Shown here piece by piece: positions 9,066-19,070 of a stretch of DNA of 64,000 bases. Source of the stretch: Ideonella livida (GTDB lineage: Bacteria; Pseudomonadota; Gammaproteobacteria; Burkholderiales; Burkholderiaceae_C); NCBI RefSeq assembly GCF_010499455.1, contig NZ_JAAGOH010000011.1:1-64000 (forward strand). The letters are read 5' to 3'. Numbering within the stretch: the first letter of the stretch is position 1; the number at the start of each line of letters is the position of its first letter. The position numbers and the translations under genes were made by a program. Below the pieces are notes generated by a model. It ran no database searches. It was not told where the DNA came from and saw nothing but the letters and a program-made list of their open reading frames with translations.

Positions 9066-10142
9066 TCAAGCCGGATCGGCCACGGGCGCCGACCGGGCGG
9101 CTACACCTGCCGCAGGCTTGGCCGCCGGACCGGCTGCGCCCGGCGGTGGGGGGCTCGTGGACGCGGCCGCCAGTTCCTCCAGGGGCATGACGGTGACGGC
9201 CACCTGCGGCACGGCACGGCCGCCTCCGCGGATGACTCCGCGCAGTGGGGCCACATCCGCATAGTCACGGCCCCAGGACAGGGTCACGTGGTCGGTGCCG
9301 GCGGGCACGTTGTTGGTGGGATCCAGCGCCACCCAGCCCTGCAGCGGGCACCACACGGCCACCCAGGCGTGGGAGGCATCGGCCCCGACCAGACGCGGTT
9401 GGCCCGGGGGCGGCTGGGTCAGCAGGTAGCCACTGACATAGCGGGCCGACAGGCCCAGCGAGCGGCAGGCCCCGATCATCACGTGGGCAAAGTCCTGGCA
9501 AACGCCCTCCCGGCCGGCCAGCGCGTCGGTGGCCCGGGTGCTCACCGAGGTGGCCAGGGGCTTGTAGGTGAACTGCGCGTGGACCTGGGCCATCAGGGCC
9601 AGCGCGCCGGCCAGCACGGAGCGCCCGGGCAGAAAGGCCTCACGCCCGAAGGCGGCCAGGGCCGGGTCGTGGGGGACGTAAACCGATGGCAGGCTGAACT
9701 CCACCGCCTCGGAGTGCACGGCACCGGCGTGATAGCGCAGGCTGGCGGCCACATCCTCCCAGGCGGGGCTGGCCGCCAGGTCGAGGGTCGGTGGTGGGGC
9801 GAGGCCGGCCTCAAAGCTGGAGACCACCCGCAGCCGGTCGTGCACCCGGGCATGGCTGAAGCTCAGCCGCAGGTTGCCAAAGGGATCATGGCTGCACTGC
9901 CTGGCCGGCACGGCCGCCGGGCCGGCCACTGCGGCCCCCGACGCCATGGGGTCCAGGTCCACCCATTCGTCGGGGGCGGGGTCGACCTGGAGCCGCCACT
10001 GGCGCACCGCCTGCCAGGGCGTAGCGCGGGGCGCCAGGAAGGCCACGTGATGTGCCAACTCGGCGGGGGCGTCGTAGAGGTAGGTGGTCTCGTGGGTGAC
10101 CTGCAGCCAGCGCAGGGGAGCGGCGGAGGGGACGGAAGTCAT
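9066..10142 (-). CDS. Transglutaminase-like cysteine protease-fold protein (distal gene of ATP-grasp/alpha-E cluster)
   Basis: The protein has 358 residues. An N-terminal beta-sandwich of the transglutaminase-associated type (residues about 10-110) precedes a transglutaminase-like core with an intact triad: Cys215 in GVCQDFAH, His258 in DASHAWV and Asp274 in LDPTNN. The last 45 residues are Pro/Ala-rich. Bacterial members of this family are usually peptidases or amidases, not cross-linkers. The ATG at 10142 overlaps the upstream gene's TGA (ATGA), indicating translational coupling; a GTG two codons earlier is possible. It is the last gene of the five-gene minus-strand cluster. No signal peptide is visible, so it is probably cytoplasmic. 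Confidence 0.9.
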   Translation of the reverse strand: MTSVPSAAPLRWLQVTHETTYLYDAPAELAHHVAFLAPRATPWQAVRQWRLQVDPAPDEWVDLDPMASGAAVAGPAAVPARQCSHDPFGNLRLSFSHARVHDRLRVVSSFEAGLAPPPTLDLAASPAWEDVAASLRYHAGAVHSEAVEFSLPSVYVPHDPALAAFGREAFLPGRSVLAGALALMAQVHAQFTYKPLATSVSTRATDALAGREGVCQDFAHVMIGACRSLGLSARYVSGYLLTQPPPGQPRLVGADASHAWVAVWCPLQGWVALDPTNNVPAGTDHVTLSWGRDYADVAPLRGVIRGGGRAVPQVAVTVMPLEELAAASTSPPPPGAAGPAAKPAAGVAARSAPVADPA

Positions 10143-17633: not shown

Positions 17634-19070
17634 TCAGTCTTCCAGCACCCAGGTGTCCTTGGTGCCGCCGCCCTGGCTGGAGTTGACCACCAGGGAGCCC
17701 TCCTTGAGCGCCACCCGGGTCAGGCCACCGGGCACCATCTGCACGCTCTTGGTGCCCGAGAGCACGAAGGGGCGCAGGTCGATGTGCCGCGGGGCGATGC
17801 CCGACTCCACGAAGGTCGGGCAGGTGGACAGGCTCAGCGTGGGCTGGGCGATGTAGTTGCTGGGGTTGGCCAGCAGGTGCTCACGGAAGGCCGCGATCTC
17901 GGCCTTGGTGGCCGCCGGGCCCACCAGCATGCCGTAGCCGCCGGCACCATGCACTTCCTTGACCACCAACTCGCCCAGGTGGTCCAGCACGTATTGCAGG
18001 TCGCCCTTCTCGCGGCACAGGTAGGTGGGCACGTTGTTCAGGATGGGCTTCTCGCCCAGGTAGAACTCCACCATCTTGGGCACATAGGGGTAGATGGACT
18101 TGTCGTCCGCAATGCCGGTGCCGATGGCGTTGGACAAGGTCACGTTGCCGGCCTTGTACGCCGCCACCAGGCCGGGGCAGCCCAGGGTGGAGTCCTTGCG
18201 GAAGACCTGCGGGTCCAGAAAGTCGTCGTCCAGGCGGCGGTAGATCACGTCCACCCGGCGCGGGCCGCGCGTGGTGCGCATGAACACGTAGTTGTCCTTG
18301 ACGAACAGGTCCTGGCCCTCGACCAGCTCCACCCCCATCTGCTGCGCCAGGAAGGCGTGCTCGAAATAGGCGGAGTTGTACATGCCGGGTGTCATGACCA
18401 CCACGGTGGGGTCGTTCACGCCGGCCGGGGCGACGCTGCGCAGGGTATCCAGCAGCAGGTCCGGGTAATGGGCCACCGGCGCCACCCGGTGCTCGGAGAA
18501 CAGCTCGGGGAAAAGCCGCATCATCATCTTGCGGTTCTCGAGCATGTAGCTCACGCCGCTGGGCACCCGCAGGTTGTCCTCCAGCACGTAGTAGCTGCCC
18601 GAGCCGTCGGCGTTGGCCGCCCGCACGATGTCGATGCCTGCGATCTGCGAGTACAGGCCACCGGGCACGTCCACGCCCATCATTTCAGGGCGGAACTGGG
18701 CGTTCTGCAGGATCTGCTCGGCCGGGATCAGTCCCGCCTTGAGGATCTCCTGGCCGTGGTAGATGTCGTGGATGAAGCGGTTGAGCGCGGTCACCCGCTG
18801 CGCCAGCCCCTTCTCCATCTGTCGCCACTCGGCAGCCGGGATGATGCGGGGGATCAGGTCAAACGGGATCAGGCGCTCGGTGCCTTCGCCCGAATCCTTG
18901 TCCCCGTAGACCGCGAAGGTGATGCCGACACGGCGGAAGATCATTTCCGCCTCATCCCGCCTCGCCTTCATCGTCTCCCGCGGCTGGGCTGCCAGCCAAC
19001 GGTCATAAGTGGTGTAGTGCTCGCGGACCGCGGCACCCTGGGCATGCATTTCGTCGAAGCTGGGTCTCAT
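17634..19070 (-). CDS. Circularly permuted type 2 ATP-grasp protein (stand-alone)
   Basis: The protein has 478 residues. Key segments are FAVYGDKDSGEGTERLIPFD near residue 55, YYVLEDNLRVPSGVSYML (nucleotide-binding strand), NSAYFEHAFLAQQMGVELVEGQDL, RRLDDDFLDPQVF (acidic metal-binding region) and KEVHGAGGYGMLVGP (glycine-rich loop). These align block for block with the N-terminal half of the fused protein. The expected chemistry is ATP-dependent acyl-phosphate formation and amide ligation; the substrates are unknown. First gene of the five-gene unit, with GGAGAG seven bases before its ATG. The 311-base region upstream probably holds the operon promoter. Confidence 0.92.
   Translation of the reverse strand: MRPSFDEMHAQGAAVREHYTTYDRWLAAQPRETMKARRDEAEMIFRRVGITFAVYGDKDSGEGTERLIPFDLIPRIIPAAEWRQMEKGLAQRVTALNRFIHDIYHGQEILKAGLIPAEQILQNAQFRPEMMGVDVPGGLYSQIAGIDIVRAANADGSGSYYVLEDNLRVPSGVSYMLENRKMMMRLFPELFSEHRVAPVAHYPDLLLDTLRSVAPAGVNDPTVVVMTPGMYNSAYFEHAFLAQQMGVELVEGQDLFVKDNYVFMRTTRGPRRVDVIYRRLDDDFLDPQVFRKDSTLGCPGLVAAYKAGNVTLSNAIGTGIADDKSIYPYVPKMVEFYLGEKPILNNVPTYLCREKGDLQYVLDHLGELVVKEVHGAGGYGMLVGPAATKAEIAAFREHLLANPSNYIAQPTLSLSTCPTFVESGIAPRHIDLRPFVLSGTKSVQMVPGGLTRVALKEGSLVVNSSQGGGTKDTWVLED

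What the first reader, a model, noticed from the sequence alone, without database searches (positions are those of the whole stretch)
9066..19070. Five-gene ATP-grasp / alpha-E / transglutaminase cluster carrying both split and fused enzyme versions
Seen: one minus-strand unit encodes a stand-alone ATP-grasp, a stand-alone alpha-E, a transglutaminase/DUF2126 protein, an ATP-grasp-alpha-E fusion (930 residues) and a second transglutaminase, with coupled ends (a 4-base overlap at 10139-10142). Matching blocks (YFEHAFLA versus YFEQVFLA; RRLDDDFLDP versus RRVDDDYLDP; RYMERAEN versus RYTERAEN) show that the fused protein repeats the split pair. Known: genome-context work on amidoligases predicted that these families build and cut peptide or isopeptide bonds, often with an Anbu-type protease. 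Anbu is not in this window. Inferred: two ligase modules with different substrates and two peptidase-like proteins could form a complete make/trim pathway for an unknown peptide tag or metabolite.
Basis: partly seen in the sequence, partly recalled or inferred. Interest (0 to 1): 0.75.

Follow-up and report, generated by a model that had tools for sequence, protein, structure and literature searches.

The report
Nitrogen-starvation amide-bond gene cluster
This is a widespread set of bacterial genes for making and cutting amide bonds, apparently switched on by nitrogen starvation; its fused enzyme looks like an inactive partner rather than a second copy of the working ligase.

Summary
The five genes are real and correctly placed. 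They are a common, known type of locus: two conserved modules placed head to tail. Module 1 (split ATP-grasp + alpha-E) is the core of the Anbu-type operon. Module 2 is TG-DUF2126, fused ATP-grasp-alpha-E, and a small TG. Among 398 phylum genomes I counted the fused gene in 119; 118 of these have two or more ATP-grasp matches. Anbu is present in this genome, on another contig directly behind mutS; Pfam's proteasome model misses it.

The split and fused copies are not equivalent. An E-x-N motif resembling the metal-ligand motif of GspS is present in 60 of 60 readable split sequences and complete in 0 of 95 fused ones. The fused protein is therefore probably a pseudo-ligase partner; DUF2126 is the more plausible second ligase (weak GS-like fold match).

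A sigma-54-type promoter motif lies upstream of the split ATP-grasp (49 of 58 loci) and of module 2 when it stands alone (53 of 69), but not when module 2 follows another cluster gene (2 of 21). This agrees with published NtrC/nitrogen-limitation data from other species. Substrate and product remain unknown.

The parts
17634..19070 (-). Split CP ATP-grasp ligase (478 aa), module 1; E164-x-N166 motif, K371 and GGYG loop intact
   Evidence: Pfam PF14403/PF04174; residue counts
16654..17607 (-). Stand-alone Alpha-E (317 aa), module 1; RYMERAEN motif
   Evidence: Pfam PF04168; ER motif kept
12950..16549 (-). TG-DUF2126 (1199 aa), module 2: transglutaminase-like domain with Cys180/His229/Asp245 plus DUF2126 predicted GS-like amidoligase; low-complexity linker about residues 590-695
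   Evidence: Pfam; triad 94 of 94 readable relatives; model and Foldseek; linker in alignment A2
10139..12931 (-). Fused ATP-grasp-Alpha-E (930 aa), module 2; E-x-N motif and Gly-rich loop not kept, Alpha-E ER motif kept
   Evidence: Pfam; model and Foldseek
9066..10148 (-). Small transglutaminase-like protein (360 aa), module 2; Cys217/His260/Asp276
   Evidence: Pfam; triad 77 of 77
19097..19112 (-). Candidate sigma-54 (-24/-12) promoter TGGTGCGGCTATTGCT, 26 bases before the ATP-grasp start codon
19325..19339 (-). Candidate NtrC site GCACTTAAGTGGTGC (GCAC-N7-GTGC); weaker evidence

Best explanation
The locus is two co-regulated amide-bond modules joined under one NtrC/sigma-54-type promoter. 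Module 1 (split ATP-grasp + alpha-E) is the active ATP-dependent carboxylate-amine ligase of the Anbu system; its Anbu hydrolase has moved behind mutS and its own transglutaminase is lost. Module 2 (TG-DUF2126, fused ATP-grasp-alpha-E, small TG) adds a second, GS-like ligase domain and two papain-fold amidase/transferase domains. Its fused ATP-grasp-alpha-E is a pseudo-ligase: it keeps the fold and alpha-E but has lost the metal motif, and probably acts as a substrate-binding or scaffold partner. Under nitrogen limitation the system would form and later cut amide or isopeptide bonds on a small peptide, amine or protein. Shown here: anatomy, residue loss, synteny, co-occurrence, promoter-motif conservation. 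Inferred: that the motif residues bind metal, DUF2126 activity, the partner role of the fused protein, regulation in this species, substrate, and direction of flux.
For: Domains. Two modules: in relatives module 1 occurs as ATPg-aE-TG-Anbu without module 2, and module 2 as TG-DUF2126/fused/TG away from module 1. DUF2126 is in 113 of 124 genomes with two or more ATP-grasp matches, 7 of 90 with one, 0 of 184 with none. Anbu is in the own genome, matches five solved sequences, three of them named Anbu, at E 5e-90 to 1.5e-62, and follows mutS. E-x-N: E and N in 60 of 60 readable split sequences, neither in 80 of 80 fused; 15 further fused genes have no N, and E in 2. 118 of 119 genomes with the fused gene have two or more ATP-grasp matches; the exception is 74% complete. 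The fused model matches 3n6x (E 2.3e-31), glutathione synthetases (about 1e-10) and GspS (1.2e-3). DUF2126 model: the best eight hits are GS-type enzymes or an annotated glutathione synthase, lowest E 0.039. Sigma-54 motif: 49 of 58 (ATP-grasp), 53 of 69 (free module 2), 2 of 21 (module 2 behind another cluster gene), 1 of 23 (Anbu) (shuffles). NtrC and RpoN genes present. Published: the B. cenocepacia cluster is NtrC/sigma-54 dependent (PMC5491218, passages); P. putida PP_2685 and PP_2688 rise by log2 4.4 and 4.0 on nitrate versus ammonium (PMC8050072, passages).
Against: No substrate or product is known. GS-like fold hits for DUF2126 are weak (0 at E <= 0.001) and unrelated folds follow from rank 9 on. 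The reading of E164-x-N166 as metal ligands rests on resemblance to GspS E330-Y-N332, whose ligand roles are recalled; hhalign of the split profile against GspS alone was not significant. The fused class keeps many other conserved residues (E237, D254, D286, N314, R433 in 40 of 40) and has R for N in 72 of 80, which could mean changed chemistry rather than none. Anbu shows the sigma-54 motif in only 1 of 23 loci, so it is not obviously co-regulated. 47 of 119 fused-bearing genomes have no detected Anbu. The NtrC palindrome is no commoner than in shuffles before free module 2 (4 of 70), and the window's site (-269) is not at the position of those in Ideonella/Aquabacterium (-103). In Y. bercovieri, pull-downs showed no stable complex of Anbu with the other operon proteins (PMC6376114, passages).
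Confidence: 0.5

Rival explanations
1. The fused ATP-grasp is still an active ligase with a rebuilt site (Arg in place of Asn, another residue supplying metal or charge) and a substrate different from that of the split enzyme.
For: The replacement is fairly uniform rather than random (R at the N position in 72 of 80, Q at the R168 position in 63 of 80); E237, D254, D286, N314, G317, R433, D472 and W474 are kept in 40 of 40; the Lys position is K or R in 58 of 80; the model has an ATP-grasp fold.
Against: E-x-N is complete in none of 80 + 15 fused sequences; in 40 aligned fused proteins G377 is kept in 2, G380 in 1, D322 in 1 and D431 in none; the window copy has Ala at the Lys position.
Confidence: 0.27
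2. A protein-tagging system: ligases attach a peptide tag to proteins and Anbu/TG domains remove it or degrade tagged proteins (a ubiquitin/pup-like analogue).
For: Proposed for the Anbu operon by Iyer 2009, as cited in PMC6376114 (passages; the 2009 paper itself is not held).
Against: YbAnbu showed no peptidase activity on 20S-proteasome substrates (PMC6376114); ATP-grasp-fold matches of the fused model are mostly to small-molecule ligases. I did not search the window for a small tag gene (ORFs under 120 aa were not listed).
Confidence: 0.13
3. Mainly a scavenging (hydrolytic) route that frees amino groups from amides or peptides in nitrogen starvation; the ligase-like proteins only activate or bind substrates.
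For: Nitrogen control; two TG domains with complete Cys-His-Asp triads plus Anbu in the genome.
Against: The split ATP-grasp keeps its conserved site residues, and the Y. bercovieri homologue releases phosphate from ATP (PMC6376114, passages).
Confidence: 0.1

Closest known systems
Anbu operon (ATP-grasp, alpha-E, transglutaminase, Anbu; PMC6376114, PMC5666114, passages)
   Same: Split ATP-grasp + alpha-E pair; Anbu present in the genome; nitrogen-limitation link reported for homologues
   Different: Anbu lies on another contig behind mutS; the operon's own TG is missing; a second module (TG-DUF2126, fused, TG) is attached
B. cenocepacia I35_5080-5083 (DUF404/407, DUF403, TG-like, large TG-like; PMC5491218, passages)
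   Same: ATP-grasp, alpha-E and a large TG-like protein in one cluster, NtrC/sigma-54 dependent
   Different: Includes a stand-alone TG-like gene between alpha-E and the large one, which the window lacks; no fused gene is named among those four
Glutathionylspermidine synthetase/amidase and eukaryotic glutathione synthetase
   Same: ATP-grasp fold (Foldseek); E-x-N motif in the split enzyme; ligase-plus-amidase logic
   Different: No significant profile match to GspS alone; fused copy lacks E-x-N; alpha-E and DUF2126 have no counterpart known to me
GS-like amine glutamylation enzymes (GmaS, 7cqw)
   Same: Best fold neighbours of the DUF2126 model
   Different: Weak match (E 0.039); much larger protein fused to a TG domain

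Membership tests
Anbu-type ATP-grasp/alpha-E operon | Circularly permuted ATP-grasp followed by alpha-E | tested here: met
Anbu-type ATP-grasp/alpha-E operon | Anbu gene in the same operon | tested here: not met
   Anbu at G000:C5:165602-166396, other contig
Anbu-type ATP-grasp/alpha-E operon | Anbu somewhere in the genome | tested here: met
Anbu-type ATP-grasp/alpha-E operon | Operon's own stand-alone TG after alpha-E | tested here: not met
   alpha-E is followed by TG-DUF2126; the only two Bact_transglu_N matches in the genome are in the window
Catalytic CP ATP-grasp (split protein) | E-x-N motif, Lys and Gly-rich loop | tested here: met
   60 of 60 readable split sequences
Catalytic CP ATP-grasp (fused protein) | E-x-N motif and Gly-rich loop | tested here: not met
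   E-x-N complete in 0 of 80 and 0 of 15 more; G377 2 of 40, G380 1 of 40
Catalytic CP ATP-grasp (fused protein) | ATP-grasp fold | tested here: met
   predicted model: 3n6x E 2.3e-31, TM 0.85 by target length
GS/GCS-like amidoligase (DUF2126) | Pfam DUF2126 'putative amidoligase' | tested here: met
   1345.9 bits
GS/GCS-like amidoligase (DUF2126) | GS-like fold | tested here: inconclusive
   best hits are GS-type but lowest E is 0.039
GS/GCS-like amidoligase (DUF2126) | Ligase activity | not testable with these tools
   needs enzymology
NtrC/sigma-54 regulon | -24/-12 promoter motif conserved upstream | tested here: met
NtrC/sigma-54 regulon | NtrC site conserved upstream | tested here: inconclusive
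   11 of 59 versus a mean of 1.5 in shuffles before the ATP-grasp, 4 of 70 versus 1.5 (maximum 6) before free module 2; position differs in the window
NtrC/sigma-54 regulon | Induction in nitrogen limitation | not testable with these tools
   published only for other species

The most novel reading that the evidence does not exclude
The fused ATP-grasp-alpha-E is an obligate pseudo-ligase: it has lost ATP/metal chemistry throughout its clade, travels with an active split ATP-grasp, and works as a regulatory or substrate-presenting subunit of a nitrogen-starvation conjugation machine in which DUF2126 is the second real ligase.
Probability: 0.4. Interest if true: 0.65.

Novelty: new member of a known kind. 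Interest (0 to 1): 0.45.

Why it matters
The Anbu operon was described in 2008-2009 (works cited in PMC6376114) and the papers I could see still call its function open. The analysis turns the question into specific tests: work under nitrogen limitation, treat the two modules separately, assay the split and fused ATP-grasps side by side, and test DUF2126 as a ligase. It also warns that Pfam's proteasome model (PF00227) missed this genome's Anbu, so absence calls made with it are unsafe.

Tried and rejected
A first conclusion, 'no Anbu in this genome', drawn from PF00227 (only HslV beside HslU), was wrong; an Anbu profile built from five relatives found it.

'Recent duplicates' rejected: 150 of 469 aligned residues identical and a fully supported split/fused bipartition.

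Absence of alpha-E in several of my ORF maps was an artefact of how overlapping ORFs were chosen: tblastn found alpha-E without a stop in 14 of 14 loci rechecked.

A sigma-70-type promoter or a minus-strand terminator in 8900-19500: none found (pattern scan only).

A profile link of the split ATP-grasp to E. coli GspS alone failed. The pdb_via comparison was unavailable. The stand-alone module-1 TG triad was not counted (pattern not found). Iyer 2009 is not held, so I cannot say whether it already noted a degenerate fused form; the listings showed no paper that I recognised as describing one.

Full report
Anatomy. The five ORFs, their order and the coupled end are as described, and Pfam confirms the domains. 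NCBIfam gives no family for any of the five. The closest named loci by identity are Ideonella, Sphaerotilus and Aquabacterium, so I take the window to be from a Burkholderiales bacterium. Its genome (5.26 Mb, 104 contigs, 99.2% complete) has no other CP_ATPgrasp_1 match and no other Bact_transglu_N match.

Two modules, not one pathway with a duplicate. I mapped 20 regions from relatives and 19 more plus the own Anbu region. The split ATP-grasp and alpha-E occur either with a TG of about 270 aa and Anbu (for example L038, L039, L040, L041, L044, L053) or, in most mapped members of the window's own family, without them; G246 keeps that TG. TG-DUF2126, fused ATP-grasp-alpha-E and a roughly 300-aa TG form a separate unit in that order, which can be co-directional with module 1, divergent from it, or far away. 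In Variovorax-like relatives the order is RidA, small TG, fused, TG-DUF2126 on one strand and comEC, ATP-grasp, alpha-E on the other; in the window, both Ideonella loci, Aquabacterium and a proteobacterial MAG (L109) both modules lie co-directionally downstream of comEC (alpha-E of L076). The co-directional order is also seen in a Verrucomicrobia MAG (L128) and a Planctomycetota MAG (L148). My ORF maps miss some alpha-E genes; tblastn found them in 14 of 14 loci rechecked.

Distribution. In one sample of 398 phylum genomes, own genome included, CP ATP-grasp is in 214, DUF2126 in 120 and Anbu in 145. DUF2126 is in 113 of 124 genomes with two or more ATP-grasp matches, 7 of 90 with one and 0 of 184 with none; Anbu is in 72, 70 and 3 of these groups. 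I called the fused gene by hand from the printed rows (about 600 bits or more, or a long unbroken frame that covers alpha-E): 119 genomes. Of these, 118 have two or more ATP-grasp matches; the exception, G149, is 74% complete; 107 have DUF2126 and 72 have Anbu. Six genomes with two ATP-grasp matches had no clear fused call, one search printed only its best rows, and I did not check one by one that the other match is of the split class. The counts are not corrected for phylogeny.

Anbu. PF00227 found only HslV. A profile of five Anbu proteins found Anbu at G000:C5:165602-166396 (E 1.1e-123). Its product matches five solved sequences, three of them named Anbu (E 5e-90 to 1.5e-62), and the gene starts two bases after a mutS frame and lies before pyrG. 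In the 12 family genomes of the sample Anbu is present in 12 of 12, always on another contig or more than 250 kb from the split ATP-grasp (positions). I verified MutS as neighbour only in the window's genome.

The fused ATP-grasp has lost the metal-like motif. In a joint alignment of 21 split and 40 fused proteins the split class is invariant at E164, N166, R168, D322-D323-K324, K371, G377-G378-Y379, and in all 20 readable rows at G380 and D431. In the fused class E164 and N166 are kept in 0 of 40, R168 in 1, D322 in 1, G377 in 2, G380 in 1 and D431 in 0. With all sequences at hand: split, 60 of 60 readable have E and N (one fragment is gapped); fused, 0 of 80 have either; the N position is R in 72 and the R168 position Q in 63. 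Fifteen further fused genes, chosen because they are divergent or lack DUF2126, have no N, and E in two. E. coli GspS carries E330-Y-N332 twelve residues after D318, residues that I recall from the literature as its metal ligands; the split proteins have D147 and then E164-x-N166. The fused model (mean pLDDT 85.5) matches 3n6x, eukaryotic glutathione synthetases and trypanothione synthetase below E 0.001 and GspS at 1.2e-3, so the fold supports the comparison, though hhalign of the split profile to GspS alone did not. The E and R of the alpha-E ER motif are kept in 76 of 76 fused and 51 of 51 split proteins. FastTree separates the 21 split from the 40 fused sequences with support 1.0; under midpoint rooting the root falls inside the fused set.

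Hydrolase and second ligase. The TG Cys-His-Asp is kept in 94 of 94 readable TG-DUF2126 and 77 of 77 small TG proteins. The DUF2126 model (mean pLDDT 75) has GS-type enzymes and an annotated glutathione synthase as its best eight Foldseek hits, but the best E is 0.039, none is below 0.001, and from rank 9 on unrelated folds are mixed in. I read this as suggestive support for Pfam's 'putative amidoligase'.

Regulation. Upstream of the split ATP-grasp lies TGGTGCGGCTATTGCT (19112-19097) and, further up, GCACTTAAGTGGTGC (19339-19325). A sigma-54 score (my own weights, GG and GC required) of at least 12.4 within 200 bp occurs in 50 of 59 ATP-grasp upstreams (shuffle mean 5.4, maximum 12), 54 of 70 free module-2 upstreams (4.8, 14), 2 of 21 module-2 genes with another cluster gene within 900 bases upstream on the same strand (1.3, 5; in 20 the neighbour is alpha-E or a TG, in one Anbu) and 1 of 23 Anbu genes (1.8, 6). 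After removing one duplicate genome: 49 of 58, 53 of 69, 2 of 21 and 1 of 23. Free versus coupled before that removal: Fisher p 3e-8, not corrected for relatedness. The motif thus goes with the transcription unit. A plain consensus search of the window is not enriched (92 matches with up to two mismatches against 113 expected), so the evidence is its conserved place, not its sequence alone. The exact NtrC palindrome is in 11 of 59 ATP-grasp upstreams (shuffle mean 1.5, maximum 4) but in only 4 of 70 free module-2 upstreams, within the shuffle range. The window holds four such palindromes in 64 kb, and the genome's glnA has one at -251 with a weaker sigma-54-like site. NtrC and RpoN genes are present. 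In an ntrC mutant of B. cenocepacia I35_5080-83 fall 6- to 9-fold (PMC5491218, passages), and P. putida PP_2685/PP_2688 rise on nitrate (PMC8050072, passages).

Verdict. Its reading of two parallel ATP-grasp ligases is probably wrong for the fused one. The most useful points are the class-wide loss of the E-x-N motif in the fused protein, its near-constant company with another ATP-grasp, the moved Anbu, and the conserved nitrogen-type promoter motif that follows the modules through rearrangement. I could not read Iyer 2009, which may have anticipated part of this.

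Noticed in passing
G000:C5:165602-166396 (L056 8603-9427): Anbu starts 2 bases after the mutS frame and lies before pyrG; Pfam and NCBIfam scans give it no family at all.
   Followed up: yes
window 12950-16549: TG-DUF2126 carries a long low-complexity linker (about residues 590-695) that is shorter in the seven relatives aligned with it.
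   Followed up: partly
window 19382-22551: comEC is directly upstream of the ATP-grasp and a RidA-like gene beyond it; in many relatives RidA instead lies at the far end of module 2, marking a local rearrangement.
   Followed up: partly
window 6874-9021: A prolyl-oligopeptidase-type (S9) hydrolase converges on the small TG gene; of the other mapped loci only L095 showed a hit, about 1.9 kb beyond its alpha-E.
   Followed up: no
L169-L180: The fused gene occurs without DUF2126 in 12 of 119 genomes; in 9 of these 12 fetched stretches a TG of the small type overlaps or adjoins it, suggesting that fused + small TG is the tighter unit.
   Followed up: partly
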